From Kribbella voronezhensis (GTDB taxonomy: Bacteria > Actinomycetota > Actinomycetes > Propionibacteriales > Kribbellaceae), in contig NZ_SOCE01000001.1 in NCBI RefSeq assembly GCF_004365175.1, positions 4,285,403-4,349,402 of the forward strand: DNA of 64,000 bases, given 5' to 3'. The stretch's first letter is position 1, and the number at the start of each line of letters is the position of its first letter. Below the pieces are notes generated by a model, which was given only the letters and a program-made list of their open reading frames with translations, was not told the origin of the DNA and did not search any database. The translations under genes and the position numbers were made by a program. This document shows, piece by piece, positions 6,305 through 47,131 of the stretch.

Positions 6305-7531
6305 AGCAGGCGTCGTCAAAGCAGGAGTAGGAAGTTTGCGCTGCCAGACCTCGTCCAGCGCCATCCGCATCGCGCCGGTGACCACTGCGTCCTCAGCAAG
6401 CGCCGACAGCTCCAGCTTCGGGTGGTTGAGCGTCAGCAGCCGGAGCTGGTCGGAGATCGCGTCGAGCAGCACGGCACCCGCTCGCGCCACGCCGCCACCG
6501 ATCACCACGGCCGTCGGGTCGAGAACCAGCACTGCGGGCGCCAGGGCCCTCGCGAAGTCGCGAGCGACCTGCTGCACGACTGCCTGCGCGACCGGGTCCC
6601 GCTCAGCGGCCGCGGCGAACACGTCGGCCGTGTCGAGCTGGTCGCGGCCGAGCTCTGCCAGCCGTGAGTCGGGGTTGGCCAGCGCTGCCTGCCGCCCGAG
6701 CTCGGCGATCGCCTCGGAGCCGACCGCGCGTTCCAGCGGACCGCGGCTGTCCTCGGGGTTGATCACGTCGTCCGGCGCGGTGGCGATGAAGCCGATCTCA
6801 CCCGCTGCGCCCGTACCGCGATGCAGCCGGCCGTCGATCACGATGCCGGCGCCGAGCCGCTCACCCCACTGGACCGCCAGCAAGGTCCCCGTGCCACCGC
6901 GGGCCGCGGCGATGGCCAGTGCGGCCAGGTTGGCGTCGTTGTCCAGCATGACCGGGCAGTCGAGCAGGCTGCGAACGTGCTTGGTCAGGTCGACCGCGGA
7001 CCAGCCGGGCACGCTCGGCACCAGCTGGACGCGACCGGTGTGCTCGTCCACGATGCCCGGGCTCGCGGCGACCGCGGCTGCGATGTCCTCGGCCGGAACC
7101 TCGGCCTCGGCGAGTGCTTCGGTGATCACCTCGCTGATCACACCGAGCAGTTCCTGAGCGCTCCAGCCCGGTCCGGACCGGCGTACGAGCGACAGCTTGC
7201 GGCCGGCCAGGTCGGAGACGCCTACGGTGACCCGGTGCGGACCGACATCCAGCCCGAGCACGGGTGCGGCGCGGCCACGCAGGGACACCCGGATGGCCGG
7301 GCGGCCGAGGGAGCGGTCCGCGGAATCCGGCCCGTGTTGCTGCAGCCAGCCGTTGTCCAGCAGCTCGTCGACCGCCTGGGCGACGGTCGGTCTGGCCAGA
7401 CCCGTCCGTTCCACCAGTTCGGCGACCCGCAGCGGGGCCGGTGCCGAGCGGCGGACCGCATCCAGCACGGCCGCGACGTTGATCCGGCGCAGCATCGTCG
7501 TACCGCCGCCGCCGACCGTTCCCTTGCCCAT
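6302..7531 (-). CDS. ROK family transcriptional regulator
   Basis: About 409 residues. An N-terminal winged helix (RVAELVERTGLARPTVAQAVDELLDNGWLQ) is followed by an ROK sugar-kinase-like domain starting at VLGLDVGPHRVTVGV. The DNDANLAALA motif and the GTGAAGEIGF segment are present, but the zinc-binding CxCGxxGC-type motif expected after it is absent. That fits a regulator with a degenerate kinase fold rather than a glucokinase. I start at ATG 7531, which has AAGGGG about eight bases upstream; a GTG at 7552 is less likely. It stands alone, so its inducer sugar is unknown. Confidence 0.85.
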   Translation of the reverse strand: MGKGTVGGGGTTMLRRINVAAVLDAVRRSAPAPLRVAELVERTGLARPTVAQAVDELLDNGWLQQHGPDSADRSLGRPAIRVSLRGRAAPVLGLDVGPHRVTVGVSDLAGRKLSLVRRSGPGWSAQELLGVISEVITEALAEAEVPAEDIAAAVAASPGIVDEHTGRVQLVPSVPGWSAVDLTKHVRSLLDCPVMLDNDANLAALAIAAARGGTGTLLAVQWGERLGAGIVIDGRLHRGTGAAGEIGFIATAPDDVINPEDSRGPLERAVGSEAIAELGRQAALANPDSRLAELGRDQLDTADVFAAAAERDPVAQAVVQQVARDFARALAPAVLVLDPTAVVIGGGVARAGAVLLDAISDQLRLLTLNHPKLELSALAEDAVVTGAMRMALDEVWQRKLPTPALTTPA

Positions 7532-7627
7532 GTCCGACCCCTTGCCTGCCACTCGCCCATCCTATATACAAAGCGAGCGTTCATAAATGAGCACACTCCG
7601 GGCGCGAGTGGTTCGTTCCGGAAGGGC

Positions 7628-10549
7628 TCAGTCTTGCAGGACAGTACGGGCAAAACTGCTCAGCGCCTCGCGGTCGGGCTGCTGCGTCTTGGTCATCAGG
7701 CTGGCGACATGCTTCTCGACCGTGCGCGGCGAGATGTGCAGCCTCGACGCGATCGACTTGTTGCCGATCCGGTCGACCAGCAACCGGCAGACCTCGTACT
7801 CCCGGGTGGTGACGCCGAGCTGGCGCAGATTCGCCGGCACCTGATCGGTGCCCGTACGCCGTTGCGAGACCGTCGCGCCCAGTTGCCGCAACAAGCTCCG
7901 GCAGGCGCTGGCCACTGGCTGCACGTTGGCGGTGTGGAAGTAGTCCTCGGCCTGCCGCAACCACGCGACCGGCTCGCCCCAACCGTCGGCATGGGCCGGC
8001 TCGGCCACCATGCGCAGGCCGAGGTGGCGGGCCATCGGATAGAGCGAAGACGTCTCCAGCGCCTCGGCCGCCATCGCGTTGGCCTCCTCCGGCCGTCCGT
8101 CGCGGCCGAGCAGCACCGCGTGTCCCCATTGGACGAACTGCCGGTTCCAGCGCATCTTGCTGCCCGCGGTCGCCGAGACCGCCTCGAAGTGCGGCCAGCC
8201 GTTGCGCCCGGCGAGAACGCCCAGCAGCAACCCCAGTCCGTTCTTTCCGGCCATGTGAAACGTAGTGGGGTTCTGCGCGTCGTACGCGAGTGCCTGGGCC
8301 ATGTCCGACTCGGCCAGCTCGCGGTTCTCCTCGAGCAGCGCACAGAACGTCCGGGCCAGCCCGTACGACAGCGGCAGCTCGTGCGAGGCCCGCTCACCCC
8401 AGGTCGCGAGCTCGGCGAGGGTGGCCTCCATCTCAGCGCGTTTGCCCTGGTGGCCGGCCAGTACAGCCTTGGTGACCAGCACGTACGGCGCGCCGCGGGT
8501 GAGCTTGAGTCGCTGGGTGACCGCCAGGCAGGCCTCGATCATCTCGGCGGCCTTCTCGTACTCCGAACGCAGGATCGCCTGTTGGCCGAGGGCTCCGTCG
8601 ACCTCGTACGCGCTGGGGATCGCGCCGATCCGCAGCGCCTGCTGGCGGGCGTGTTCCAGCTCGGTCACGTCACCGTCGGCCAGGCACATCGTGCCCGCCT
8701 GGAAGATGTGCGAAAGGTTCTGCTGGACGGCCAGGTTGTGCTCGGCGGCCACCTGCCGGGCCCGCCGGAAGTAGCCGATCGACTGATCGAGATCGTGTTC
8801 CCGCGACAGGATGCCGAGCAGTTGCCAGGCGTCGACGGCGACCTCCGGCAGGTCGGCCCGTTCGGCCGCCTCGGCCGCCCGGGTGGCCAGGTCGGCAGCA
8901 GACTTCAGTCGTCCCGGGCTCGTCTTGGCCAGTTCGAGGGCCGCCGCCATCGCGTCCAGCGGCGCCAGGTCGGCGTCGGCCGCGTCCGGTCCGAGCAGGG
9001 ACCGCGCGACGGCCACATGGGTGGACGCCGACGACCAGCGGCCGGCGATGTGTTCGACGCCGGCGAGCCGGACGTGCAGCGCCGCCACCTTGCGGCTGTC
9101 CAGTCCGCGATTGGCCAGCTCCTCGATCGCCTCCGCGGTGGCTGCGGGGTGGCCGAACTGCCCCGTCTCGCCGACCGCCAGCAGCAACGCCCCGAGGACG
9201 TCGGCGCGGTGAACGACGTCGGGATCCCCGGCGAGCAGGGTGTTGGCACGGTCCAGCAGGTTCACCGCGGACGCCATCGAGCCCTCGGCGAACGACCGCC
9301 GGCCGGTGACGGCGAACAGCCGGCCGGCGCGGGCGACGTCACCGCCGGCCTGGGCCAGCTCGGCCACCATCGGCGCCCACTCGCCCGGCAGACCGGGGTG
9401 CAGTTCTTCGATCGCGTCCGCGCAGCGGCTGGCCAGACCAGCTCGCTCGGTCGGATTCAGGCCGGCCAGCAAGGCCTCGGCCGTCAGCGGATGCCGGAAG
9501 GCGTACCAGTCCGGGACCGGCTCGTCCGGCCCGACCAGCTGGGCGGCCAGGCCGGCCCGCAGGGTCGCCAGGAGCTGCCGTTCGTCGACGCCGCTGGCGT
9601 GCCGGACCACGCTGAGCGGAAAGCGGTGGCCGATCACCGCGGCCAGGACCAGGATCTCCCGCGACTGCGGTCCGAGCTGATCGGTCCGGCTGCCGATGCT
9701 GCGGACCACCGCGGCCGGCACCGTCATCCGGAAGTCGTCGACCACCTGCACGGTGCCATCGATTGCCGAGAGCAACTGTCCGGACCGGCTGGCCTCCTGC
9801 AGCAGTTCCTCCACGATGAAAGGGATTCCGGCACTGTCGGCCCAGAGTCGCTCGACCAGCCGGTCAGGCACGCCGGCCGGTGCGACCTCGAGGCAACCGG
9901 CCGTGAGCTCGCGGACGTTCTGCCGGTCGAGCGGGTGCAGTTCGACGAGAGCCGCCGTACCGCGTTGAGCCGCGAGCTGAGCGAGCTCGGCCGCCGGGGT
10001 CCGGTCCGGCCGGAGCGTCGCGACGACGGCGATCGGCTGGTCCTGGAGATTGTCGAGCAGGTACTCGATCACCGCCAGTGTCTCCGGATCCGAGCCGTGC
10101 AGGTCCTCGAGCACCAGCAGGCAGCCCCGGTCCCGGCCGACCAGCTGGAGCAACCGCAGGATCGCCTCGCCGAGGACGACGGCGGAGATTCCGCTCTCCG
10201 GTACGTCGCCGTCGTCCCAGTCGGGAACGAGGCGTCCGAGCACCCGGCGATAGAGCCCGAGCCGTTCGGGGTCGGGCATCTCGCCGCGGCGGATCAGGGA
10301 CAGCAAGGCCTCGGTGAACGGGCGGAAGGCGACCATCGTGCCGATCGCGCCGACCCGGCCGCGGAGCGTCGCCATGCCGTGATCGAGGGCCAGCGTGGTG
10401 CCGACGGCGGCCAGCCGGCTCTTGCCGATGCCTGGCTCGCCGAGCAGGAAGACCGCACCCCCACGTCCGGCGCGAGCCTCGGCGAGCAGGTGATCGAGCT
10501 GATCGATCTCCCCGTCTCTGCCGACCACTCTGGGCGCATGGGTCTGCAT
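7628..10549 (-). CDS. LAL-type LuxR regulator with AAA ATPase domain
   Basis: 973 residues, typical for large ATP-binding LuxR regulators (MalT-like). The N-terminus has a Walker A motif GEPGIGKSR near residue 40 and a Walker-B-like CLLVLEDLHG segment. A long helical middle part resembles tetratricopeptide repeats. The last 65 residues are a LuxR helix-turn-helix (TTREYEVCRLLVDRIGNKS, then HISPRTVEKHVASL). Such proteins often control secondary-metabolite clusters. It lies downstream of and codirectional with the lanM unit, separated by 137 bases holding two overlapping hairpins, so it is a plausible but unproven pathway regulator. Confidence 0.9.
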   Translation of the reverse strand: MQTHAPRVVGRDGEIDQLDHLLAEARAGRGGAVFLLGEPGIGKSRLAAVGTTLALDHGMATLRGRVGAIGTMVAFRPFTEALLSLIRRGEMPDPERLGLYRRVLGRLVPDWDDGDVPESGISAVVLGEAILRLLQLVGRDRGCLLVLEDLHGSDPETLAVIEYLLDNLQDQPIAVVATLRPDRTPAAELAQLAAQRGTAALVELHPLDRQNVRELTAGCLEVAPAGVPDRLVERLWADSAGIPFIVEELLQEASRSGQLLSAIDGTVQVVDDFRMTVPAAVVRSIGSRTDQLGPQSREILVLAAVIGHRFPLSVVRHASGVDERQLLATLRAGLAAQLVGPDEPVPDWYAFRHPLTAEALLAGLNPTERAGLASRCADAIEELHPGLPGEWAPMVAELAQAGGDVARAGRLFAVTGRRSFAEGSMASAVNLLDRANTLLAGDPDVVHRADVLGALLLAVGETGQFGHPAATAEAIEELANRGLDSRKVAALHVRLAGVEHIAGRWSSASTHVAVARSLLGPDAADADLAPLDAMAAALELAKTSPGRLKSAADLATRAAEAAERADLPEVAVDAWQLLGILSREHDLDQSIGYFRRARQVAAEHNLAVQQNLSHIFQAGTMCLADGDVTELEHARQQALRIGAIPSAYEVDGALGQQAILRSEYEKAAEMIEACLAVTQRLKLTRGAPYVLVTKAVLAGHQGKRAEMEATLAELATWGERASHELPLSYGLARTFCALLEENRELAESDMAQALAYDAQNPTTFHMAGKNGLGLLLGVLAGRNGWPHFEAVSATAGSKMRWNRQFVQWGHAVLLGRDGRPEEANAMAAEALETSSLYPMARHLGLRMVAEPAHADGWGEPVAWLRQAEDYFHTANVQPVASACRSLLRQLGATVSQRRTGTDQVPANLRQLGVTTREYEVCRLLVDRIGNKSIASRLHISPRTVEKHVASLMTKTQQPDREALSSFARTVLQD

Positions 10550-10593
10550 GGTTCCAAACTCTAGCTACGCTCCGGTTGGATCGCAGTGGGTTC

Positions 10594-10648
10594 GGCCGGT
10601 CGCCTTCGACCGGCCCGGCTGGCTCAAGCGCTTGTTCCAGCCGGGCCG
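10594..10648. terminator. Two overlapping stem-loops after the lanM unit
   Basis: Stem A pairs CGGCCCGGCTGG (10611-10622) with CCAGCCGGGCCG (10637-10648), 12 perfect base pairs with a 14-base loop. Stem B pairs GGCCGGTCG (10594-10602) with CGACCGGCC (10607-10615), nine base pairs with a 4-base loop. The stems share 10611-10615, so they cannot fully form together. They lie between the stop of the 70-residue peptide and the LAL gene. No clear U-tract follows, so termination strength is uncertain; an attenuator or operator is also possible. Confidence 0.65.
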
Positions 10649-10686
10649 ACGTCAGGCATCGCTGTGTTTCTCGGGTGCGGCAGGGA

Positions 10687-10899
10687 TCAGTGCGGTGCGC
10701 TGATCGAGGTGAAGGTGCCGCAGTTCTCGGTGACCTCGACGATGCCGACGGCCAGTGCGCTGGCGGTGCCGACCAGCGCAAGGGCCCGCGCGCCGATCCG
10801 GCCGCGCTTCGGGAGGGTGATCGGGCCGATCGGGTCCGGCTGCTCGTCGACCGGCTGGGCGGCGACCTGGTCTTCGGGCTGGTTGTGCTGGGCGGTCAT
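10687..10899 (-). CDS. Putative class II lanthipeptide precursor (70 aa, one Cys)
   Basis: 70 residues. The N-terminal half is hydrophilic and acidic (QPEDQVAAQPVDEQPDP), as in many leader peptides. Then come a KRGR basic patch and a hydrophobic stretch (ALALVGTASALAVGIV), and a Ser/Thr-rich tail VTENCGTFTSISAPH holding the only Cys (residue 60). The ATG overlaps the lanM stop (ATGA) with AGGGGA upstream, so it is co-translated with the synthetase. Its size, place and tail suit a LanM substrate able to form one thioether ring, perhaps between Thr57 and Cys60. Against this, one Cys and a membrane-like helix are unusual, and no GG/GA cleavage site is obvious. It could instead be a small membrane protein. 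Confidence 0.6.
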   Translation of the reverse strand: MTAQHNQPEDQVAAQPVDEQPDPIGPITLPKRGRIGARALALVGTASALAVGIVEVTENCGTFTSISAPH

Positions 10900-13853
10900 G
10901 CTGTTTCCCCTGTCGAATGGTGTTCTGTCCGGACCGGACGCTGTGATGGGCGCCGGAGACCGGTGGTGGGTTCTAGCAGCAGCACGGACGGAACCTGTCC
11001 GCCGAAACCGAGCCGGAGCAAGCCGTAGCCGATCCCGGCCAGACCTGTCAGCAGGCCTGGTGAGGAGACGGCGCGCGGCGTACCGCAGTGCGGTCCGTAC
11101 TGCTGTATTGCGGCGAGCACCAGCCCGGCCCGGCGGCGCCGGACCGCCTCTGTGGCCGGGTGCTCGCGATCGGTGAGCCACAACAACGGCTCGACCGCGC
11201 CGAGCTCGCCGTGACACAGACTCATGTCGGCGAGCACCGGACGTTCTTCGGCGGACCTCAGATAGGTGTCGAGGTCCGTGGTCACACCAGCGGACAGCCG
11301 GGCGAGGGTGGTGCCGGCTCCGCCCGCGCACCAGCCGGCATCGGCGTGGTCGCGCTGATCGAGGTCGATGGAAGTCAGGTCGATGGCAGCCCGCGCCGCG
11401 TCGGCGTACCGGCTGTCCTGTACTGCGTACTGCCCGAGTGCCCAGGCGATTCCCTCGTACCCGCGGGCGAACCCGTGGTCGGGTGCCTGCGCCCGGCGGG
11501 CCACCGCGGCGACCAGTTCGTCGGCGTACCGGGCGGCCAGTCGGGTGGCTGCCGGTTGGCCGTGGATCGCCAGCATCGCGGCCAGCCCGCCGGCCGCACC
11601 CTCGACGTAGCCGGGGAACTGGTCCGGTTCGGGGGTGAGCTGTTCGCTGAGTTCGAGTGAGGACGCGAGCCACTTGGTGACGTCGGATTCGTCCAGCAGC
11701 GAGCTGAGCCGGTTGAGGCCGTAGCTGATTCCCCCGAGGCCGTGCAATCCGGGGCCGACGATCTGTGCGGCCTCCGGCGCGGCCGCGAGGGAGTCCAGCA
11801 GCAAGGGGATCGGGCGGATCGCGTCCCTGGCCAGGTCGGTGTACTTCTCCGCGCCGGTGAGTGCGCCGATCTGGGCCAGGAAGAGCGCCGTACCGGTGAA
11901 GCCGTTCGACAGACCCGCGCCCATCGGCATCACGGCCCAGTGGTGGTCGTCGAGCAGTTCGAGGCTCAGCCAGTTCGCCTCGCCGTTGCTGCCGAGGACC
12001 TGGGCCATGATCTCGTCGGCGATGTCGGTGGCGGCCGCGAGCAGTCGCTCGGGATCGGCTTCCGCCGCGCCGACGGCCGGCCTGCTCGCCGTAGTGGTGT
12101 GCACGACCGGTTCGGGGCGGGTGGCCAGGCAGGCCGAGATGAGCCACTGCTGGCGGTGCTGGTCGATCTCGCTCATCGCCGCGATCTTGGCCTCGACCAC
12201 GTCGAGTCCCTTGTGGGCAAGGAGGTCTGGCACCCGGCTGCCGTCGGCGGCCCAGACATCGGTGCTGTCCGGCCGGGCTGTGAAGAGCGGGACGTCGCCT
12301 GCCCACAGGTCGGCCAGCTCGTACGGCACCAGCCGGTGCAGGGCCGGATCCGCGTCCCAGAGCAGGTCGAGCAGCTGGCTGCGGCCATCGGCATCGCGGA
12401 GCGCGTCCGGATGGGTCGCCTCGTCCAGCAAGGTCACGTAGGTCTGGGTAGGACGGGCGACGTACCTGATCTCGTCGGCCGCGCAGCGGGCCAGGAGGCC
12501 GTCCGGCCCGAGTAGTTCGTTGCGGTGCCAGGCGATCGCCTCATACGCCGCCCGGAACCCTGTCAGGAGAGCGATCTCGTAGTCCCGCGGCTCCATGTCG
12601 ACGCCGTGCAGCCGGGGCCGGTTGCGGCCACCACGGGTGGTGGCAGGACGCCGTACGAGGTGCATCGTGTCCAGTCCGGCGTCGGCCCAGTCGACCTTGC
12701 TGATCGGCGACACCTCGCCGACGTCGCCGCCGAGCCCCGAGATGTCCGCCACACCGTGCTCGCCGGTGAACAGCAGCGGCAGCAGAGCAGTGCGGTAGAC
12801 AGAGCTGCGCAGTGCCGAGTGAGCCGGGTCCTGGCCCAGTACGCCGTTGCCCTGCTGGCTCGGGTGGAAGAGGGTCTCCACGTCGACGAACACCGGCTGG
12901 TCGCCCGCGGCGATCAGGTTCTCGTAGTGCATGTCGGTGCCGTCCAGCACGTACAGCAGGGTCAGCAACGCGCCTTGCCGGTGGTAGAAGCGGCGTACTT
13001 CGGTCAGGTCGGTACAGGGCTTGTGCTCGATGAACCCGAGCCAGCCGTACCCCGGCCGGCACAGCACCGGAACGGTTCGCAGGCCCAGGCCGGTCCTGCC
13101 GTTCAGCCAGCCGACCAGCTCGTTGAAGTGCTGGTGCAGCTCCAGCGGCCGTGGCTTGTAGACCACCTTCCGGCCGTCCGCGAAGGTCAGCGTGGCCGTC
13201 GACCGTCCACCGCGGTGCGGATCACCACCGGGCAGCACGCTGGTCAGGGCGCCGGGGTCCGTGCCGGCCAGCAACTCGGTGACCACCAGCTCGCGGTCCT
13301 CGGCGAGGCGGGCCAGCAGTTCGAGGTGACCCTCGACAGCCTGTCGGCACGCCTCGCCCAGGACCCGGGCCAGCACCGGGTATGCGGCCAGGAATTCCGC
13401 CAGCTCGCTCCCTCCCGCGAGCCGGTGGGTGAAGTTCAGGAATCGCTCGGCCGGTGTCTGCCCGGCCAGTTCGTTGCGGCTCCGGGCGCGGGCCAGCTCC
13501 AGCACCAGGGTGCGAGCGGCCGACCGGACCAGCCGGTCTCCGAGTTGTTGCAGGAACTGCTCGGCCACGACCCCGGTGTGCCCGGCCGAGGCCAGGTCCT
13601 GCCGGGCCGATTCGAGCAACGGCGCGAGGCATCCGAGCAACGCCTGCCGCCAGTCGTCTCCCACCGGCCTGCGCTCGAAGGTCGAGGTCGTACTGCGTTC
13701 CACATACGCCGCCCAGGCAGGCATCTGCCGGCCCGGTTCGTGCGGACCCACGCCGGCCGTCCACCAGGGCTTCGCCTGGCCGGCCCGGAGTGTCGGCGTG
13801 GTCGCGGAGTTGAGCACGGGCTCAGGGTGCCATCGGGTACTGGGTGCTGCCAT
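10896..13853 (-). CDS. lanM: Class II lanthipeptide synthetase LanM
   Basis: 985 residues. The N-terminal two thirds are the DUF4135 dehydratase domain, with the kinase-like segments TLTFADGRKVVYKPRP, LDGTDMHYENLIAAG and FVDVETLFH. This domain phosphorylates and eliminates Ser/Thr to give Dha/Dhb. The C-terminal third is a LanC-type cyclase with the zinc-ligand motifs GWCAGGAG and LCHGELG and a third Cys in HCGTPRAVSSPGLL, so it should be active. It ends in ATGA overlap with the 70-residue putative precursor. No dedicated transporter or protease is adjacent, so export and leader removal must rely on other loci or the precursor is unusual. Confidence 0.95.
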   Translation of the reverse strand: MAAPSTRWHPEPVLNSATTPTLRAGQAKPWWTAGVGPHEPGRQMPAWAAYVERSTTSTFERRPVGDDWRQALLGCLAPLLESARQDLASAGHTGVVAEQFLQQLGDRLVRSAARTLVLELARARSRNELAGQTPAERFLNFTHRLAGGSELAEFLAAYPVLARVLGEACRQAVEGHLELLARLAEDRELVVTELLAGTDPGALTSVLPGGDPHRGGRSTATLTFADGRKVVYKPRPLELHQHFNELVGWLNGRTGLGLRTVPVLCRPGYGWLGFIEHKPCTDLTEVRRFYHRQGALLTLLYVLDGTDMHYENLIAAGDQPVFVDVETLFHPSQQGNGVLGQDPAHSALRSSVYRTALLPLLFTGEHGVADISGLGGDVGEVSPISKVDWADAGLDTMHLVRRPATTRGGRNRPRLHGVDMEPRDYEIALLTGFRAAYEAIAWHRNELLGPDGLLARCAADEIRYVARPTQTYVTLLDEATHPDALRDADGRSQLLDLLWDADPALHRLVPYELADLWAGDVPLFTARPDSTDVWAADGSRVPDLLAHKGLDVVEAKIAAMSEIDQHRQQWLISACLATRPEPVVHTTTASRPAVGAAEADPERLLAAATDIADEIMAQVLGSNGEANWLSLELLDDHHWAVMPMGAGLSNGFTGTALFLAQIGALTGAEKYTDLARDAIRPIPLLLDSLAAAPEAAQIVGPGLHGLGGISYGLNRLSSLLDESDVTKWLASSLELSEQLTPEPDQFPGYVEGAAGGLAAMLAIHGQPAATRLAARYADELVAAVARRAQAPDHGFARGYEGIAWALGQYAVQDSRYADAARAAIDLTSIDLDQRDHADAGWCAGGAGTTLARLSAGVTTDLDTYLRSAEERPVLADMSLCHGELGAVEPLLWLTDREHPATEAVRRRRAGLVLAAIQQYGPHCGTPRAVSSPGLLTGLAGIGYGLLRLGFGGQVPSVLLLEPTTGLRRPSQRPVRTEHHSTGETA

Positions 13854-14256
13854 GGGTACGGAGCCCCCATATTCGTCGGCCGGCGGCGAGGCCGAGTGGG
13901 TAGTGCTGCCGCACCGCGGGATGGCGACTGGGGGTTGACCACCCCGCGGCAGCAGCGCCTGGCCGATCGAACCTCTGGTGGAAGGTCAGGCCGGACCAGG
14001 AACTCCGGTACTACGGGCAACCGTCGGACGGCCCCCGCTGCTCTGCGTTCTCGACGTTGGCCTCCTTCGGTTGCGTTTCTAGGGATGGATGTGACCGAAC
14101 GCCGTGAACGATGCCTGAGGGCGCACGGGCCGGGCAAGACCTCCGGGCACCCAAATTCGGGCCTCGGGGGCGCACCGTTCACCTACGTGCGGGCGGGGCG
14201 GAACATGGGGGCGGATCACCCATGTGCGCCGGCTGATCAGCTGCGACGGTGGCTAG
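13854..14256. promoter_or_regulatory. Divergent region between lanM and the LLM oxidoreductase
   Basis: About 400 bases without a convincing gene. It must hold the promoter of lanM (leftward) and of the flavin oxidoreductase (rightward). Visible structure: an 8-bp inverted repeat GCTGCCGC (13905-13912) / GCGGCAGC (13946-13953), and a CATGGG/CCCATG hairpin-like repeat around 14204-14224. Short open frames on both strands have no recognisable protein pattern. Either repeat could be an operator for the LAL regulator, but no specific evidence links them. Confidence 0.4.
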
Positions 14257-15339
14257 GTGTTCAGCCCTGTCACACCCGGTCTCCCGGTCTCTGCCCACTC
14301 GGTCCTCGACGTGGTGCCGCAGATGGCCGGGCAGTCTGCCGCGGCTGCGTTGCGGGAGACAGCCGAGGTCGCCCAAGCGGCGGACGACCTTGGCTACCGG
14401 CGCTTCTGGCTTGCGGAGCAGCACGGTGTGCGCGGTATCGGCAGCGCGGCGCCCGCAGTGCTCGCCGCGGTACTGGCCGCCCGTACCGATCGCATCCGGC
14501 TGGGCTCGGGTGCGGTGATGCTGGCGAACCACCAGCCGCTCGTGATCGCCGAGGAGTTCGCGGCACTCGCAGCGGCGTACCCGGGCAGGATCGACCTGGG
14601 AGTCGGCAAGGCTCCGGTGGCGGCCGCGCCGACCACCGCTGCAGCGCTTGGCCGGACCGACGTCGGCTGGGACGCGTTCCCGCAGCGGCTGGACGAGCTC
14701 TGCGGCTTCCTGCGCGACGGTCTCCCCGGGCGTGCTCCGGTGGGAGATGTCCGGCTCGCGCTTGCTGGGTTGCCGCCACCGGTGTTCGTGCTGGCCGGCA
14801 CGCCACATGAGGCGCAGGTGGCCGCAGTACGGGGGCTGCCCGTCTTCCTGGCTCACCACACGACCTCACAGACCACGCTCGCGGCAGCAGCGGCGTACCG
14901 GGAGTTCTTCGAGGCGACAGGGCCCACGGGCAAGCCGTACCTCGCAGTCACGGTCGGGATCGTCGCGGCCGACACGGACGAGGAGGCGGTGATCCGGCTC
15001 GCGGAGTACGTCCGGGTGAAGCTCCGGCTCAACGCGGCGTCGTCCAGGGCTACTCCGGCCGAGCTGCTGGAGATTCTGAGGTCTCCGCTGACCACTCGGG
15101 AGCGGCACCGGGCAGAGCGGCTGCTGGACGATCCCGGCCACATCATCGGGTCCCGCGCGACGGTTGCCTCGGAGCTGGCGTCGCTGGCGGCCAGTACCGG
15201 CGCGGACGAGATCATGCTGGTTCCACTGGCCTACGACGGGCTGGTCCGCTCCGCCATTCTGCGGACCACTGCAGCAGGGCTGTCCCGCACAGTACGAACC
15301 GTTCCGCGCTCCACACCGCACTTCGTCGCCACTGCCTGA
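14257..15339 (+). CDS. LLM class flavin-dependent oxidoreductase (MsnO8-like)
   Basis: 360 residues starting at GTG. It shows the luciferase-like monooxygenase TIM-barrel pattern: VLDVVPQMAGQSAAAALRETAEVAQAADDLGY near the N-terminus, FWLAEQHG, RLGSGAVMLANHQPLVIAEEFA, and ADEIMLVPLAYD near the C-terminus. This matches the MsnO8-type subgroup of FMN- or F420-using oxidoreductases found in natural-product loci. It diverges from lanM and might modify the LanM product, but the intergenic distance and separate promoter make this only a possibility. A housekeeping oxygenase role is equally likely. Confidence 0.85.
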   Translation: MFSPVTPGLPVSAHSVLDVVPQMAGQSAAAALRETAEVAQAADDLGYRRFWLAEQHGVRGIGSAAPAVLAAVLAARTDRIRLGSGAVMLANHQPLVIAEEFAALAAAYPGRIDLGVGKAPVAAAPTTAAALGRTDVGWDAFPQRLDELCGFLRDGLPGRAPVGDVRLALAGLPPPVFVLAGTPHEAQVAAVRGLPVFLAHHTTSQTTLAAAAAYREFFEATGPTGKPYLAVTVGIVAADTDEEAVIRLAEYVRVKLRLNAASSRATPAELLEILRSPLTTRERHRAERLLDDPGHIIGSRATVASELASLAASTGADEIMLVPLAYDGLVRSAILRTTAAGLSRTVRTVPRSTPHFVATA

Positions 15340-15405
15340 TTCCTGCTTTGCGGCGGCCTACTGTGGGTACGGCCGACTAGTAGCAGCCGTGGAGAGGCAG
15401 AGCAG

Positions 15406-16866
15406 ATGTCGCGAGAGCAGGAAGTCATCGAAGCGTGTCCCACCGACCTGTTCATCGGGGGCAAGTGGCAGGCCGCCGAGAGCGGTAAGACGCTGGCGGT
15501 CGAGGACCCGGCCACCGGAGAGACGCTCTGCTCGGTGGCCGACGCCGGTGTCGCCGACGGACTGGCGGCACTGGACGCCGCCGTCGCCGCACAGGCCGAG
15601 TGGGCCGCGACCCCGCCTCGCGATCGCGGCGAGATCCTGCGGCGCTCGTTCGAGCTGATGACGGCTCGCGCCGACGAGCTGGCTCTGCTGATGACGCTGG
15701 AGATGGGCAAGCCGGTCGCCGAGTCGAAGGGCGAGATCGCGTACGCCGCGGAGTTCTTCCGCTGGTTCTCCGAGGAGGCCGTCCGGATCGACGGCGGCTA
15801 CCAGATCGCCCCGAACGGCAAGGGCCGCTTCGTCGTCCTGCGGCAGCCGGTCGGCCCGTGCCTGCTGATCACCCCGTGGAACTTCCCGGCCGCGATGGGC
15901 GCCCGCAAGATCGGCCCGGCGGTCGCGGCCGGCTGCACGATGGTGATCAAGCCGGCCGCGCAGACGCCGTTGTCGATGCTGAAGCTGGCCGAGCTGATGA
16001 CCGAGGCCGGGTTGCCGGCCGGCGTACTGAACGTGGTCACCACCAGCGATTCCGGTGGGGTGATGGAGCCGCTGATCAAGGACGGGCGCGCCCGCAAGCT
16101 GTCCTTCACCGGATCGACGCCGGTCGGCAAGAAGCTGATCGAGCAGTCCGCCGACCAGGTGCTGCGCACCAGCATGGAGCTCGGCGGGAACGCGCCGCTG
16201 ATCGTGTTCGAGGACGCGGATCTGGACAAGGCGGTCGAGGGCACGATGCTGGCGAAGATGCGCAACGGCGGTGAGGCCTGTACGGCGGCGAACCGGATCT
16301 ACGTGCACTCGTCGGTGATCGACACGTTCGGCGCGAAGCTGACCGAGCGGATGAAGGCGCTGAAGGTCGGCCGCGGGACCGGCGACGGCGTCGACGTCGG
16401 CCCGCTGATCGATGCGAAGCAGCGCGACAAGGTGGCCGAGCTGGTCGACGACGCGGTGTCCCAGGGCGCCGACGTACTGCTCGGCGGATCGGTTGCTGAG
16501 GGCAACGGGTACTTCTATCCGCCGACGGTACTGGCCGGCGTACCGGCGAGTGCGCGGCTGCAGAAGGAGGAGATCTTCGGGCCGGTCGCGCCGCTGACCG
16601 CGTTCGACGACGAGGACGAGGCGATCCGGATGGCGAACGACACCGAGTTCGGCCTGGTGTCGTACCTGTTCACCAAGGACCTCAGCCGGGCCCTGCGGGT
16701 CTCGGAAGCCCTCGAGAGCGGCATGGTCGGCCTCAACCAGGGCATCGTCTCCAACCCGGCGGCTCCCTTCGGCGGCGTCAAGCAGTCCGGTCTGGGCCGA
16801 GAAGGCGGCAGCGTCGGCATCGACGAGTACCTCGACGTGAAGTACATCGCCGTAGCCCTCGACTGA
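15406..16866 (+). CDS. gabD: NAD(P)-dependent succinate-semialdehyde dehydrogenase
   Basis: 486 residues, full length for the aldehyde dehydrogenase family. It carries the NAD-binding ITPWNFPAAM motif, FTGSTPVGKKL, the general-base Glu in MELGGNAPLIVFEDAD, and the catalytic Cys in GGEACTAANR, which is characteristic of GabD-type succinate-semialdehyde dehydrogenases. It should oxidise succinate semialdehyde to succinate in GABA breakdown. No GABA transaminase lies beside it, so another aldehyde substrate is possible. It converges with a TetR gene whose stop is four bases away. Confidence 0.88.
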   Translation: MSREQEVIEACPTDLFIGGKWQAAESGKTLAVEDPATGETLCSVADAGVADGLAALDAAVAAQAEWAATPPRDRGEILRRSFELMTARADELALLMTLEMGKPVAESKGEIAYAAEFFRWFSEEAVRIDGGYQIAPNGKGRFVVLRQPVGPCLLITPWNFPAAMGARKIGPAVAAGCTMVIKPAAQTPLSMLKLAELMTEAGLPAGVLNVVTTSDSGGVMEPLIKDGRARKLSFTGSTPVGKKLIEQSADQVLRTSMELGGNAPLIVFEDADLDKAVEGTMLAKMRNGGEACTAANRIYVHSSVIDTFGAKLTERMKALKVGRGTGDGVDVGPLIDAKQRDKVAELVDDAVSQGADVLLGGSVAEGNGYFYPPTVLAGVPASARLQKEEIFGPVAPLTAFDDEDEAIRMANDTEFGLVSYLFTKDLSRALRVSEALESGMVGLNQGIVSNPAAPFGGVKQSGLGREGGSVGIDEYLDVKYIAVALD

Positions 16867-37973: not shown

Positions 37974-38585
37974 ATGGGGGAAGCGGTGATCCGAGTAGTC
38001 CTCGGGCACCGCGGCACTTTGGTGCGAGGCGCACTGGCCGCGGTGTTGGCAAGAGAGTCCGATCTCGAGGTCGTGGCGGAGCTGGACAGCTCGGACGACG
38101 TTCTGCCCTCGGTGACGCGCCGGCCGCACGTGGTGCTGCTGGATCCGCAGCTGCCCGGCAAGATCGGGATCGAGAGCCTGTGCCTCAAACTGACCGGCCG
38201 CGGCGTGCTGGTGCTGATCGATCACGAGGCGATCGCCGCGACCAGTCTGGCGCTGGTCAAGCAGGCACCCCGGATCGGCTTGATAGCGACCGACGCGACC
38301 ACCGATCAGCTGGTCCAGGCGATCCGGGACGTCGCCAAGGGTCTGCCGGTCGTCGACGTCCGGCTCGCGGTCGCAGCGCTGAAGGCGGGCGACAACCCGC
38401 TGACCGATCGGGAGTGCGAAGTACTCCGCCAGGTCACCACCGGCGCTACCGCCCAGGAGATCGCCCGCACGCTCAGCCTGAGCACGGGGACGGTGCGCAA
38501 CTACCTGTCCCGCATCCTCACCAAGACCGGTGCCCGCAGCCGGATCGAGGCGATCCGGAAGGCTCAGGACGCGGGCTGGATCTGA
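37974..38585 (+). CDS. ramR: RamR/AmfR-like LuxR response regulator with degenerate receiver
   Basis: About 203 residues from ATG 37974; a GTG at 37986 with GGGGGAA upstream is an alternative start. The N-terminal half has the receiver fold, with the acceptor-like Asp in VVLLDPQLPGK. The acidic pair normally found after beta-1 is replaced by Gly-His (VVLGHRGTL), and the conserved Lys after beta-5 is missing (LIATDATT). It therefore probably works without classical phosphorylation. The C-terminus is a LuxR/NarL helix-turn-helix (LTDRECEVLRQVTTGATAQEIARTLSLS). It lies at the end of the lanthipeptide operon and converges with it, as a RamR homologue would, and is the likely activator. Its 3' end overlaps the last ABC gene by 22 bases. 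Confidence 0.85.
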   Translation: MGEAVIRVVLGHRGTLVRGALAAVLARESDLEVVAELDSSDDVLPSVTRRPHVVLLDPQLPGKIGIESLCLKLTGRGVLVLIDHEAIAATSLALVKQAPRIGLIATDATTDQLVQAIRDVAKGLPVVDVRLAVAALKAGDNPLTDRECEVLRQVTTGATAQEIARTLSLSTGTVRNYLSRILTKTGARSRIEAIRKAQDAGWI

Positions 38586-40264
38586 TCGCGTCGCAGCTGG
38601 ACTCCGGGCTGCCAGTGACCGAGTAGCTCCCGGTAGAGCGGCGAGGTCCTCAGCAGGGTCTGGTGAGTGCCGACGGCGGCCTTGTTGCCGTCGAGGACGA
38701 GGATCCGTCGCGCCCGGAGGGCCGAGCTGATCCGGTGCGCGATCACGATCACCGTGCCGCCGCGTGCCGCGAACGCTTCTTCTGCTCGACGCTCGGCGTC
38801 GGGATCGAGGAAACAGGTCGCTTCGTCCAGGACGACAAGCGGCGCGGGGGACAGGTAGGCCCGCGTGAGCGCGATCAGTTGTCGTTCGCCAGGCGACAGG
38901 TCGGCGGGTCGTAGCCGTGCCTCCAGCCCGCCCAGCCGATCGATCAGGGCAGCCGCGCCGACCGCATCGATGGCCTGCCGGACTTCGGCGTCCGAGGCGT
39001 CCGGCAGCAGGTAGACCAGGTTCTCCAGCACCGTGCCCGTGAAGACGTAGGCCTCTTGCGGAATCAGCACCCGCGTCATCGCCAGCCGGTCGGTGGACAG
39101 CTCGCTGGGCGGCACGCCGCCGAGCAGGAGCCGGCCGCTGGTCGGAGTGAGCATCCCGCAGACGAGAGCGGCCAGCGTCGACTTCCCGATTCCGCTGGGC
39201 CCGACGACGGCCAGGTGTTCGCCCTCGGTCACGGTCAGGTCCAGATCCGCCAGCACCGGTTCGGCGTTCGGGCCGTAGGCGAAGGTCAGTCCTCGCAGCC
39301 GGAGCTGATGGCCCTTGGAATCGGCCATGGGCCGGGGCGCGAGCTGGTACGCCGTGCTGTCGAGGATCCGTCCGAGCGTGATGACGTAGCGCAGTCCACT
39401 GTCGCCCAGCGCTCCCATCACGGTGTTCAAGGCAGGTTGCAGGCTGATCAGCACGTAGGTGAGGCCACCGAGCAACGTGCCGGTGCTGACGCCATGACCG
39501 ACGAGCCAAGGCCCCATCGCCAGGAGGATCAGCAAGGGCGCCCAACCGCCGAGCGCGAAGCACAGGGTCCGCAGGGCGGCCACTCTGGCCAGCGATCGCT
39601 CGGCGGCAGCCTGCTCGTCGATCGGCCGGCCGACGATCCGCTCCGCGAACTCCTCCGAGCCGGTCGCTGTGATGTCGCGAACTCCGCTGAACACCATCCC
39701 GGCAGCCGTCGCCAGCTCCTCGTCGGCCCGGAGCGACGCCCGGACCCGGTCCGCGGCGATCCCGAGCACCGCGAGCGAAGCCACGAACCCCACCAGGAAC
39801 GGCGGTACGACGAACACCGCGACCATCGGCGCCAAGGACAACAACCCGGCCAGTACGCCGAACAGCGTGACGCCGAAGTTCCGGATCACCAGGACCAAGC
39901 CGGCGAAGGTGTCGCGGACGATCTCCACCTGGCGGTTCAGCCGTGCCACCGACGCGTCGTCGCCGGTCTGCAAGGCGCCGGCCACCACCCGGCGTACGAG
40001 GTCGTCGCGGAGGGGCTCGACCAGTTCGCCGAGGCGGCCGTAGACCTGGTGGGCGCCGGCGGCTCCGAGGCAGGCGGTGGCGACGAGTCCGGCCAGCCAG
40101 GCGATACCTCGCCAGGCGTGTCCGGCCAGGAAGTTGTCCGTCGCGTGAGCGACAGCCACGCCGTAGATTGCCGTCGGCAAGATCTCCGGGACGGACCAGG
40201 CGGCCAGCTTCAGGGCCGGGCGCTTCCGCAGTGCGGCGAAGCCGTAGCGCAGCTCGCGATTCAT
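38564..40264 (-). CDS. ABC exporter half-transporter (RamB-like)
   Basis: 566 residues from ATG 40264, which overlaps the stop of the preceding exporter gene (ATGA). The N-terminal ~300 residues are six helices of an exporter-type membrane domain. The ATPase part has Walker A GPSGIGKSTL, signature LSPGERQLIALTRA (SP replaces the usual SG), Walker B PLVVLDEATCFLD and the H-loop VIVIAHRIS. With the upstream half-transporter it should form a heterodimer that exports the class III lanthipeptide. RamB is the counterpart in SapB production. Confidence 0.92.
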   Translation of the reverse strand: MNRELRYGFAALRKRPALKLAAWSVPEILPTAIYGVAVAHATDNFLAGHAWRGIAWLAGLVATACLGAAGAHQVYGRLGELVEPLRDDLVRRVVAGALQTGDDASVARLNRQVEIVRDTFAGLVLVIRNFGVTLFGVLAGLLSLAPMVAVFVVPPFLVGFVASLAVLGIAADRVRASLRADEELATAAGMVFSGVRDITATGSEEFAERIVGRPIDEQAAAERSLARVAALRTLCFALGGWAPLLILLAMGPWLVGHGVSTGTLLGGLTYVLISLQPALNTVMGALGDSGLRYVITLGRILDSTAYQLAPRPMADSKGHQLRLRGLTFAYGPNAEPVLADLDLTVTEGEHLAVVGPSGIGKSTLAALVCGMLTPTSGRLLLGGVPPSELSTDRLAMTRVLIPQEAYVFTGTVLENLVYLLPDASDAEVRQAIDAVGAAALIDRLGGLEARLRPADLSPGERQLIALTRAYLSPAPLVVLDEATCFLDPDAERRAEEAFAARGGTVIVIAHRISSALRARRILVLDGNKAAVGTHQTLLRTSPLYRELLGHWQPGVQLRRDQIQPAS

Positions 40265-41928
40265 CCGAACACCTCGCGATAGCAGGCGTCCTGCCACAAC
40301 TCGGCGTGCGAGCCGACCGCGCGTACCAGTCCGCTGTCCAGCCAGATCACCAAATCGGCGCGGGCGGCCGTGGCGGTCCGGTGGGTGACGATCAGCCTGG
40401 TCCGGCGGTGCCGGTCCTCGGTCAGCGTCTTGCTGATCTGCATCTCGGTGGCGGTGTCGAGACTGGAGGTCGCGTCGTCGAGCACCAGCAAGCGGCTCGC
40501 CGGCCAGGCCCGGGCCAGCCCCAGCCGTTGCCGTTCGCCACCGGACATCGGTGCCTTGAGCAACGGTGTGCGATAGCCGTCGGGGAGTCGGCTCACGAAG
40601 TCGTGCGCATGGGTGGCGCGGGCGGCGGCCAAAGTCCGGACCGGGCCGATCACGTGGTGGGAAATCGCGTCGCCCACGGTGGTCCCGACCAGCTGGGGAC
40701 GCTCGAAAGCGCAGCCGATCGCGGCGCGTAGCATCTGCCGGTTCACCGCTTGCAGTGGTACGCCGTCCAGCAGGACCTGTCCCTCGGACGGGTCGCGCAG
40801 CCGGGCAGCGAGGGCGGCGAGCACCGACTTGCCGGCTCCGCTCGGCCCGACCACGGCGACCGTGGCTCCGCCGGGCAGTTCGAGATTCACGCCGGCCAGC
40901 AGCACCTTCTCACCGGCCACCACCGACACTCCGTCGAAGGTGAGCCTGCCGGGGCCGGCCGGTAGCGGAAGGGTGCCGTGGGCAACGGTTTCGACAGCGA
41001 GCACTTCGCCGGCCCGGCGGCTTCCGGCCCGCGCCCGGGCCAGCTCGCCGAGCACACCGGTCAGGCTGCCGAGGCCGGCACCGAGTACGGCGTACTGGCC
41101 GGCGGCGAACAGCTCCCCGGCAGTGATTCGTCCGGCCACCAGCTGTAGGCCGCCGACGGCCAGAACCGCCACCAGGACAAGGGGTCCGACGATCGCTGCC
41201 TGGGCACCGGAGCGGGCGAGGACGCGCCAGGTGAGCAGGCCGTGTTTGTGCAGTTCGGGAAGGAGGGCAAGGATCCGGCGCTCTTCGCGGGCGTTCGTGC
41301 CGGCTGCCGTGATCGTGCGCAGGCCGGTGAGAGCCTCGGTCAGCAGACCGGCGATCCGGCCCTGGGTCTCTTGGTAGGCGAGGCTGATCTCCGCGGTCCG
41401 GCGGGCGAACACCCAGAGCACGCCGATCACCAGCAGGATGCCGCCGAAGAAGGCGGCCGCGAGCCAGGGGTCGATCAGCGCCAGCAGCACCAGGCTTCCC
41501 GCCGGCGGGACGATCGCGGCGACGGCGTTGACGATCGCCGGCCCGGCCTGGGCGGCGTCGACGGCGTTACCGCTCACCCGGGTGACGAGATCGCCGGTGT
41601 CGAACGCGCGGGTTCCGTCGGGTCCGCTGCGGACGACGTTGCTGACCAGGCGATGCCGCAACCACGCCGTCGTGCTGACGACACAAGCCGTGCCGGTGAA
41701 CACCTCGACGAGCGCGCAGCCGATCCCGATCGCGATCAGCCCGGCGGCCAGGGCGAACCACTTTCCGTACCCGTGGTGGGCGACGATCGCGTCGACGGAC
41801 CGCCCAAGCACCGTCGGCAACGCAAGCGCCACGCCACTACCGAGCAAGGCGGTCACCCCAAGCACCGGCAGCCAACCCCGCCCGCGGCGCACCACACCCC
41901 GAAACTCCGACGCCCGCTCGCCACTCAT
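40261..41928 (-). CDS. ABC exporter half-transporter (RamA-like)
   Basis: 555 residues from ATG 41928 (MSGERASEFRG), overlapping the peptidase stop by four bases; a longer upstream frame is antisense noise. Six helices span the first ~310 residues. The ATPase part has Walker A GPSGAGKSVL, signature MSGGERQRLGLARA and Walker B RLLVLDDATSSLD. The catalytic Glu after Walker B is Asp here, as seen in the degenerate site of heterodimeric exporters. This half therefore likely pairs with the next gene product, in which the site is canonical (DEAT). Confidence 0.92.
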   Translation of the reverse strand: MSGERASEFRGVVRRGRGWLPVLGVTALLGSGVALALPTVLGRSVDAIVAHHGYGKWFALAAGLIAIGIGCALVEVFTGTACVVSTTAWLRHRLVSNVVRSGPDGTRAFDTGDLVTRVSGNAVDAAQAGPAIVNAVAAIVPPAGSLVLLALIDPWLAAAFFGGILLVIGVLWVFARRTAEISLAYQETQGRIAGLLTEALTGLRTITAAGTNAREERRILALLPELHKHGLLTWRVLARSGAQAAIVGPLVLVAVLAVGGLQLVAGRITAGELFAAGQYAVLGAGLGSLTGVLGELARARAGSRRAGEVLAVETVAHGTLPLPAGPGRLTFDGVSVVAGEKVLLAGVNLELPGGATVAVVGPSGAGKSVLAALAARLRDPSEGQVLLDGVPLQAVNRQMLRAAIGCAFERPQLVGTTVGDAISHHVIGPVRTLAAARATHAHDFVSRLPDGYRTPLLKAPMSGGERQRLGLARAWPASRLLVLDDATSSLDTATEMQISKTLTEDRHRRTRLIVTHRTATAARADLVIWLDSGLVRAVGSHAELWQDACYREVFG

Positions 41929-44045: not shown

Positions 44046-44074
44046 GGGTTCTCCTTCCGGCGGGGAGTGGGTTC

Positions 44075-44141
44075 GGCCCTGGGGGAATTGCTTCACCCCA
44101 GGGCCTTCGAAACCCTTGCACCGGCCACTCAGAACCGGTGC
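44075..44141 (-). terminator. Two stem-loops between the precursor and peptidase genes
   Basis: GGCCCTGGGG (44075-44084) pairs perfectly with CCCCAGGGCC (44096-44105), ten base pairs. GCACCGG (44118-44124) pairs with CCGGTGC (44135-44141), seven base pairs. Both lie just after the precursor stop at 44153. Placed here they would stop part of the transcription or protect the upstream RNA, so that far more precursor than peptidase and exporter is made. Confidence 0.65.
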
Positions 44142-44152
44142 GCCGGCGCCGA

Positions 44153-44290
44153 TCAGTGGCAGAGCAGAAGGCTCAGGTTGCTCGGGGTGTGCGAAGCGCA
44201 GCCCAGAACGGTCAGCGTGGAGCCACCACCGTGGTGGTGGCCGCCGCCGTAGCCGGGGGTCTCCAGACCCTGAAGGTCGAGAAGTGCCAT
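44153..44290 (-). CDS. lanA: Class III lanthipeptide precursor peptide (SapB/flavipeptin type)
   Basis: 45 residues, easily missed because of its size. The leader begins MALLDLQGLETP, with the LxDLQ.E motif shared by class III precursors such as RamS. Residues 13-23 (GYGGGHHHGGG) are Gly/His-rich. The core has two ring motifs of the form S/T-x2-S/T-x3-C: Ser24-Thr27-Cys31 and Ser37-Ser40-Cys44. These are sites for labionin or lanthionine rings. The ATG stands four bases after the LanKC stop, and a perfect GAAGGAGGT Shine-Dalgarno is formed by the last LanKC codons, so the two genes are coupled. Confidence 0.93.
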   Translation of the reverse strand: MALLDLQGLETPGYGGGHHHGGGSTLTVLGCASHTPSNLSLLLCH

Positions 44291-44294
44291 GTGT

Positions 44295-46868: not shown

Positions 46869-47131
46869 GCGGATTCGTCCCCCTCTCTCGTGGTTGCCCC
46901 GGCACATCTTGGGCAGCACGGAAGGGGTCGGCGTAGTGCATGACGTCACGACTAGGCCGTGAAGAACTCACTCGCTACGAGTGAGTAAGTAAACACTCTT
47001 TGTTACGTCTCCATCACTTTGAGCGGTGAAATCGGTGTTACATGATGCCAATTCGTGGCAGTGCGATCACAGGCCGTAACTTCGCGGCAGTAACTTCGTG
47101 TCACCTGTCGAGCACGGTCTGTATACAGCGA
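46869..47131 (-). promoter_or_regulatory. Promoter region of the class III lanthipeptide operon
   Basis: This gap holds CTCACTCG (46967-46974) and CGAGTGAG (46978-46985), a perfect 8-bp inverted repeat about 100 bases before lanKC. Farther upstream is the 9-bp direct repeat GTAACTTCG at 47076-47084 and 47090-47098, spaced 14 bases. More GTTAC-like elements lie between. LuxR-type activators such as RamR bind promoter-proximal repeats, so these are candidate sites. The base composition here is clearly less GC-rich than in the neighbouring genes. Confidence 0.55.

What the first reader, a model, noticed from the sequence alone, without database searches (positions are those of the whole stretch)
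10687..13853. LanM coupled to a 70-residue, one-cysteine, membrane-helix-like peptide
The sequence shows a complete LanM with intact zinc ligands, whose stop overlaps the start of a 70-residue peptide by ATGA. The peptide has an acidic leader-like half, a hydrophobic stretch and a tail VTENCGTFTSISAPH with a single Cys and five Ser/Thr. Established LanM substrates usually have several Cys and a GG/GA cut site. If this is the substrate, the product would have only one thioether ring and several dehydrated residues, or be a membrane-anchored lanthipeptide. No transporter or protease is adjacent. I cannot exclude that the true precursor lies elsewhere.
Basis: partly seen in the sequence, partly recalled or inferred. 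Interest (0 to 1): 0.78.

Follow-up and report, generated by a model that had tools for sequence, protein, structure and literature searches.

The report
Lanthipeptide synthetase with cysteine-optional substrate
A Kribbella soil bacterium carries a lanthipeptide-making enzyme welded to a small peptide that is very probably its substrate; the same enzyme-peptide-regulator trio is widespread in actinobacteria, but most versions of the peptide lack the cysteine that such enzymes need to make their defining rings, although the ring-forming metal site of the enzyme is always kept.

Summary
Observation confirmed. LanM (10896-13853, minus) overlaps by ATGA a 70-aa peptide (10687-10899) with one Cys. 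The genome is a Kribbella with no other LanM. The 38th lost LanM, peptide, regulator and the neighbouring luciferase-like oxidoreductase gene in one clean deletion. Beyond Kribbella, 58 LanM loci (Saccharothrix, Lentzea, Kutzneria, Streptomyces and others) carry the same order: LanM, 60-85-aa peptide, LuxR/AAA regulator. Leader positions are conserved (G 99/99, R 95/99, L 94/99), and a Thr/Ser column in the tail is kept in 93/99.

The single Cys is not the defining feature: 64 of 94 family cores have none, 26 one, 4 two or more, and presence switches at least 12-13 times on the LanM tree. Membrane-helix hydrophobicity is not universal. Yet all 97 LanMs keep the Cys-Cys-His zinc site and stay under purifying selection (dN/dS about 0.2), even with Cys-free peptides. 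Best reading: a class II synthetase module that dehydrates a short Thr/Ser tail, the thioether ring optional. Product, export and cleavage are untested. New variant of a known kind.

The parts
10896..13853 (-). LanM, class II lanthipeptide synthetase, 985 aa; dehydratase domain (DUF4135) and LanC-like cyclase domain with Cys-Cys-His zinc ligands
   Evidence: TIGR03897 746 bits, PF13575, PF05147; catalytic and zinc residues kept in 97/97 relatives; only LanM in the 8.03-Mb genome; nearest solved structures LicM2 6st5 and CylM 5dzt
10687..10899 (-). Probable LanM substrate (precursor peptide), 70 aa, ATGA overlap with LanM stop; leader ...DPIGPITLPKRGRIGARALALVG, core-like remainder TASALAVGIVEVTENCGTFTSISAPH
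   Evidence: translation; homologue behind LanM in 37/37 congeneric LanM loci and in 58 loci of other genera
7628..10549 (-). LuxR-type regulator with N-terminal AAA ATPase (LAL type), 973 aa; third constant member of the module
   Evidence: PF13191, PF00196; homologue directly behind the peptide in every locus examined, 40-57% identity outside Kribbella
10592..10652 (-). Strong hairpin between peptide and LuxR gene, possible transcription attenuator or terminator
   Evidence: MFE -44.8 kcal/mol for 112 nt, z -2.2 against shuffles; function inferred
14204..14224 (.). Palindrome CATGGG-N9-CCCATG in the divergent LanM/LLM promoter region, possible operator
   Evidence: only copy in the 64-kb window; same place in 20/37 congeneric loci; function inferred
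14257..15339 (+). Luciferase-like (MsnO8 family) flavin oxidoreductase, divergent neighbour; Kribbella-only companion, optional
   Evidence: TIGR03558 285 bits; present in 34/37 congeneric loci, absent from L058 and L062 which keep LanM, peptide and LuxR; absent from the loci of other genera

Best explanation
The 70-aa peptide is the cognate substrate of the LanM in a compact three-gene module, LanM - precursor - LuxR/AAA regulator. The N-terminal part (up to ...GARALALVG) acts as leader: LanM binds it, phosphorylates Ser/Thr of the C-terminal part and eliminates phosphate to give Dhb/Dha, chiefly in the conserved T-[TS]-[VI]-[ST] tail (here FTSIS). In species whose peptide has a Cys, as here, the zinc site can close one (methyl)lanthionine ring. 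In the majority that lack Cys the product would be a linear dehydropeptide, or would receive a nucleophile from outside the peptide. Leader removal and export would use enzymes encoded elsewhere, and the LuxR/AAA protein controls the module. Shown by sequence: gene order, conservation, joint loss, intact LanM, Cys-optional core. Inferred: dehydration, ring, leader boundary, export, regulation.
For: Peptide next to LanM in 37/37 congeneric LanM-bearing genomes (36 by tblastn; the divergent 37th, L067, by reading). G023 lacks both: its ROK and SSADH genes lie 237 bp apart, with LanM, peptide, LuxR and LLM all gone. Tandem copies in L034, L035, L036, L040, L041, L043, L061. The same order recurs with diverged peptides in second Kribbella clusters L111 and L112 and in 58 loci of other genera. 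Conserved leader positions G 99/99, R 95/99, L 94/99, G 93/99; tail Thr/Ser column 93/99. Every core with a recognisable boundary has at least 2 Ser/Thr, mean 6.2. The leader evolves more slowly than the core (dN/dS 0.29 vs 0.43 in Lentzea, 0.36 vs 0.74 in Saccharothrix). LanM catalytic residues intact in 97/97; LanM dN/dS about 0.2 also where peptides lack Cys. Some relatives (e.g. L192) carry a WKDPxAR...HPAGEI leader that approaches the mersacidin/lichenicidin model TIGR03898 (22.3 bits vs cut-off 23.5), tying the family to class II precursors.
Against: No biochemical evidence of dehydration exists. In a few Kribbella (L060, L063, L065, L066) the very tail (e.g. APNGLPWVVGG) has almost no Ser/Thr and only the hydrophobic segment offers them. 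No transporter or protease is linked. No canonical GG/GA cut site is present. Retention of the zinc site where no Cys exists is unexplained.
Confidence: 0.8

Rival explanations
1. The LanM cyclase domain acts intermolecularly: it adds a free thiol (for example mycothiol, or the Cys of a second peptide) to the dehydrated tail. This would explain why the zinc site is kept when the substrate has no Cys.
For: Zinc ligands invariant in 97/97 LanMs although most cognate peptides have no Cys. Eukaryotic LanCL enzymes add glutathione to Dha/Dhb intermolecularly with the same kind of zinc site (PMC9934072).
Against: No direct evidence. Zinc may be kept for folding, or because Cys returns repeatedly in evolution (at least 12-13 switches). 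The thiol is a guess.
Confidence: 0.12
2. The peptide is not a substrate but a small membrane-anchored partner that recruits or regulates LanM or the LuxR/AAA protein; LanM modifies something else.
For: Hydrophobic, helix-predicted segment at residues 34-58 with 19-residue hydropathy of 1.6 or more in 33/36 Kribbella peptides; near-total loss of modifiable residues in the last 10 positions of some Kribbella members.
Against: Hydrophobicity is absent from about half of the non-Kribbella family. The tail Thr/Ser column is conserved in 93/99. Tandem copies with diverging cores, and a leader conserved above the core, are typical of RiPP precursors. Some members resemble the mersacidin/lichenicidin leader.
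Confidence: 0.1
3. The product is an ordinary lanthipeptide with one ring, Cys being the essential residue.
For: One Cys lies among Ser/Thr in the window species and in 26 of 94 family members. Single-Cys peptides next to LanC domains were reported as a real but uncharacterised group (PMC11251773).
Against: 64/94 members, including close Kribbella relatives such as L045 (77% LanM identity), have no Cys in the core. It may hold for this species but not for the system.
Confidence: 0.4
4. The true precursor of this LanM lies elsewhere and the peptide is a chance or decaying ORF.
For: Class II precursors can be unlinked (prochlorosins; own knowledge, also noted in PMC7268733).
Against: Conservation across many genera, joint loss and purifying selection; no alternative Cys-rich small ORF found nearby.
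Confidence: 0.03

Closest known systems
Class II lanthipeptide systems of the mersacidin/lichenicidin group (LanM + LanA; LicM2 is the nearest solved enzyme)
   Same: Same synthetase family, intact dehydratase and zinc cyclase; the outer members of this family keep a WKDPxAR...HPAGEI leader close to TIGR03898
   Different: Core Cys optional and mostly absent; no GG/GA boundary; no LanT/LanP; a LuxR/AAA regulator is the only constant companion
Single-Cys peptides next to LanC-type cyclases (R Soc Open Sci 2024, PMC11251773)
   Same: Prediction of one-Cys precursors beside LanM genes; the window peptide fits the criterion
   Different: That survey required at least one Cys, so it could not see that the family is mainly Cys-free; neither Kribbella nor Lentzea appears in its main text
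Cys-less LanM-associated peptides of LanM + LanKC clusters and cyanotins (mentioned in PMC7268733)
   Same: LanM with precursors lacking Cys; our Kitasatospora locus L183 also has a LanKC-type gene beside the module
   Different: Most loci here have no LanKC beside LanM; this family's leader and LuxR/AAA partner are shared by all; the prochlorosin-type LanM has a CCC zinc site (PMC11251773), these have CCH
antiSMASH 'class II lanthipeptide' region of Kribbella sp. CA-293567 (PMC9962454, Region 2)
   Same: By coordinates very probably the same locus as G029/L040 here
   Different: Annotated only as an unassigned class II region; no precursor, module or Cys analysis found in the passages read

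Membership tests
LanM (class II lanthipeptide synthetase) | DUF4135 dehydratase fused to LanC-like cyclase, above curated cut-off | tested here: met
   TIGR03897 746 vs 304 bits; PF13575; PF05147
LanM (class II lanthipeptide synthetase) | Catalytic residues and Cys-Cys-His zinc ligands | tested here: met
   97/97 relatives and window
Lanthipeptide precursor (LanA), class II | Encoded beside its LanM, conserved leader, faster core | tested here: met
Lanthipeptide precursor (LanA), class II | Cys in the core that can form lanthionine | tested here: inconclusive
   Met in the window (1 Cys), not met in 64/94 family members
Lanthipeptide precursor (LanA), class II | Dehydrated Ser/Thr and (methyl)lanthionine in the product | not testable with these tools
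   needs mass spectrometry
Mersacidin/lichenicidin family type 2 lantibiotic (TIGR03898) | Match above curated cut-off | tested here: not met
   Window peptide no match; best relative (L192) 22.3 vs 23.5 bits
Double-glycine class II precursor with LanT | GG/GA boundary and linked C39-type transporter | tested here: not met
   Boundary-like motif is AL[AV]G; no linked transporter at the window locus
Prochlorosin/cyanotin | Nif11/NHLP leader and CCC zinc site | tested here: not met
   No Pfam/NCBIfam leader match; zinc site is CCH

The most novel reading that the evidence does not exclude
A widespread actinobacterial LanM module makes cysteine-free, dehydroamino-acid peptides, or peptides whose dehydro residues are capped by an external thiol through the retained zinc site, and these serve as signals read by the co-encoded LuxR/AAA regulator rather than as ringed antibiotics.
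Probability: 0.2. Interest if true: 0.85.

Novelty: new variant of a known kind. Interest (0 to 1): 0.6.

Why it matters
Mining tools that demand a Cys in the core discard such peptides (stated for RODEO in PMC7268733; and for the 2024 survey in PMC11251773), so a large family of LanM substrates has probably been overlooked. If LanM really acts on Cys-free cores while keeping a functional zinc cyclase, that asks what the cyclase adds to the dehydro residues, a question testable by one co-expression experiment. The three-gene LanM-peptide-LuxR/AAA module, nearly fixed in Kribbella, also suggests a physiological or signalling role rather than a sporadic antibiotic.

Tried and rejected
Upstream small ORFs (14011-14175 and 14079-14219, minus) as precursor: weak, partial conservation that looks like conserved promoter DNA, no conserved Cys core. 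A second LanM in the genome: none. Membrane anchoring as the defining feature: rejected for the family because hydropathy is not conserved. The luciferase-like oxidoreductase as an essential tailoring enzyme: rejected as essential, since it is missing in L058 and L062 and outside Kribbella. A plasmid-borne origin: no plasmid match. An Rfam search of 7000-15500 gave nothing. An attempt to find further conserved genes by ORF clustering in the non-Kribbella loci was clouded by spurious high-GC ORFs; a hand-picked Pfam check of ten flanking ORFs found no shared exporter or protease. The AlphaFold model of the peptide is low confidence (pLDDT 69; helix 34-58) and was not used further. One L178 peptide was first taken in a wrong frame; the right one was read and used. 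The Actinobacteria survey of Zhang et al. 2015 could not be read.

Full report
Check of the observation. LanM is a full class II synthetase (TIGR03897 746 bits, cut-off 304; PF13575; PF05147). It is the only one in an 8.03-Mb genome of which the window is C1:4285403-4349402. The peptide itself matches no Pfam or NCBIfam model. Its nearest named relative, a LanM 96% identical, is on a Kribbella monticola contig (L032 = G014; same 626622-base contig as L170), so the window is a Kribbella.

Conservation within the genus. The peptide was searched in 38 same-genus genomes and 20-kb stretches were fetched. In 36 genomes, window included, tblastn finds the peptide directly behind LanM. In a 37th (L067) a diverged peptide...SPIGAITVGR...RRARALAGFAAGTLAIG...GHAKQTTCDPIAPDGNDIVAGCPEH, stands there, again with the ATGA overlap. 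Seven loci have two or three tandem copies. The gene order SSADH(-), LLM(-), LanM(+), peptide(+), LuxR/AAA(+), ROK(+) is shared. G023 is a natural deletion: no PF13575 anywhere, no peptide, and at the locus ROK and SSADH are 237 bp apart, so LanM, peptide, LuxR and LLM are gone as a block. LLM alone is missing from L058 and L062, which keep the other three. The constant unit is therefore LanM-peptide-LuxR.

Conservation outside the genus. A peptide-profile search of 298 genomes of the order gave no convincing peptide outside this genus. A scan of 84,980 species genomes with a LanM alignment returned 80 loci; these are the closest relatives of this LanM, not a random sample of LanMs. In the 58 non-Kribbella loci (Saccharothrix, Lentzea, Kutzneria, Actinokineospora, Umezawaea, Kibdelosporangium, Crossiella, Kitasatospora, Streptomyces, Rhodococcus, Catellatospora and others) a roughly 60-85-aa peptide follows LanM, often at offset -4. 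A LuxR/AAA homologue (40-57% identity) follows the peptide (in L196 it is on the other strand). SSADH, LLM and ROK are not there. More distant LanMs (L113, L115, L116) lack the peptide; L116 has a precursor-like ORF with several Cys upstream instead.

Anatomy of the peptide family. In an alignment of 99 peptides the consensus is ...[HD]-P-[AIL]-G-[EP]-[IM]-x-L...G-A-R-A-x-A-L-x-G, with G 99/99, R 95/99, L 94/99 and G 93/99. Then follows a variable, often Ala/Val-rich stretch, and a tail T-[TS]-[VI]-[ST], where one column is Thr or Ser in 93/99. In the window this tail is F-T-S-I-S-A-P; in Saccharothrix M-T-T-V-S-A-P-G. Several outer members carry WKDPxAR before HPAGEI and nearly reach the mersacidin/lichenicidin model (L192: 22.3 of 23.5 bits). 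That supports descent from class II precursors in which the usual boundary region was remodelled. I place the leader/core boundary after AL[AV]G because conservation falls there; this is inference. In Lentzea and Saccharothrix the leader is more constrained than the core (dN/dS 0.29 vs 0.43; 0.36 vs 0.74), and both are below 1. Kribbella values (0.68, 1.05) rest on near-saturated pairs and paralogues and are not informative.

The cysteine. After AL[AV]G, 64 of 94 peptides have no Cys, 26 have one and 4 have two or more; all have at least two Ser/Thr (mean 6.2). On a LanM tree (97 rows, FastTree, long branches present) the Cys label needs 13 changes, at least 12 on well supported branches. All 97 LanMs keep the three zinc ligands and the dehydratase residues checked (one Lys is Arg in 23). 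LanM dN/dS is 0.19-0.25 alike in clades with Cys, without Cys, and with degenerate tails. So the enzyme is maintained irrespective of Cys in the adjacent peptide.

The membrane helix. A 19-residue window with mean hydropathy of 1.6 or more exists in 33/36 Kribbella peptides but only about half of the others. The AlphaFold model gives one helix, 34-58, with low overall confidence. Anchoring is therefore possible in Kribbella but not a family property.

Mechanism. The best-supported explanation is LanM-catalysed dehydration of the Thr/Ser tail, with an optional single thioether. Steps shown: gene linkage, joint loss, conservation pattern, intact enzyme. Steps inferred: dehydration, ring, cleavage, export, control by LuxR/AAA. 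A strong hairpin lies between the peptide and LuxR genes, and a palindrome CATGGG-N9-CCCATG in the LanM/LLM promoter region is found in 20/37 congeners and nowhere else in the window. Both may be regulatory. No linked exporter or protease exists; the ABC transporters and prolyl oligopeptidase of the class III cluster 30 kb away in the same window are conceivable helpers, but nothing here links them.

Retained zinc without Cys. Three readings remain open. The site may be structural, Cys may return often enough to keep it selected, or the cyclase may add an external thiol, as LanCL adds glutathione (PMC9934072). I give the last 0.12.

Literature. The 2024 survey PMC11251773 reports 179 single-Cys peptides beside cyclase genes and calls them uncharacterised; it required at least one Cys. 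The RODEO study PMC7268733 discards ORFs without Cys in the core and mentions Cys-less LanM-associated peptides in LanM+LanKC clusters; our L183 (Kitasatospora) has a RamC-type synthetase beside the module. antiSMASH regions 2 and 3 of Kribbella sp. CA-293567 (PMC9962454) coincide in coordinates with LanM and LanKC of G029, so the locus has been listed as a class II region, without analysis that I could find. Hence a new variant of a known kind, not a new category.

Limits. No chemistry was tested. The literature library is partial; in particular the 2015 Actinobacteria survey that may discuss Cys-less LanM peptides was not held.

Noticed in passing
window 38564-46949 (-): A complete class III lanthipeptide cluster of the SapB/catenulipeptin/flavipeptin kind: RamS-family precursor 44153-44290 (MALLDLQGLETPGYGGGHHHGGGSTLTVLGCASHTPSNLSLLLCH, PF19402 E 8.7e-16), LanKC 44295-46949, prolyl oligopeptidase 41925-44096, ABC transporter genes 40261-42159 and 38564-40297.
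   Followed up: partly
G-handles against LanM positions: The LanKC gene lies about 30-36 kb from LanM in most Kribbella genomes; G023 keeps LanKC after losing the LanM module, while G015 keeps LanM without a RamC_N match.
   Followed up: partly
L067 about 14900-16000; L183 1812-4679; also L181, L194: A class III-like LanKC gene sits close to the LanM module in G032 and in Kitasatospora loci, echoing published LanM+LanKC clusters with Cys-less LanM peptides.
   Followed up: partly
L112 (G004 = Kribbella antibiotica), downstream of LanM: Two tandem peptides with a different leader (FGSDELYAG...) and one Cys in GQTSAACVGTSHETTFPPVTF and GQTSVPCMATITHTPPVTIM, in the same LanM-peptide-LuxR order.
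   Followed up: no
L068 about 9946-10140 (G018): Orphan copy of the peptide (MDANDLRPDAQ...DPIGPPELPKMSRHSLRALALAGVAVGAPMLAFIYETSTGTPTTRY) with no LanM within 10 kb.
   Followed up: no
window 14204-14224: Palindrome CATGGG-N9-CCCATG upstream of the LLM gene and LanM in 20/37 Kribbella; lost in the clade whose peptide tails lack the T-T-x-S motif.
   Followed up: partly
L177, Candidatus Melainabacteria contig CAJCJE010000600.1: A LanM-peptide-LuxR module on a short contig labelled Melainabacteria, probably a mis-binned actinobacterial contig or a transfer.
   Followed up: no
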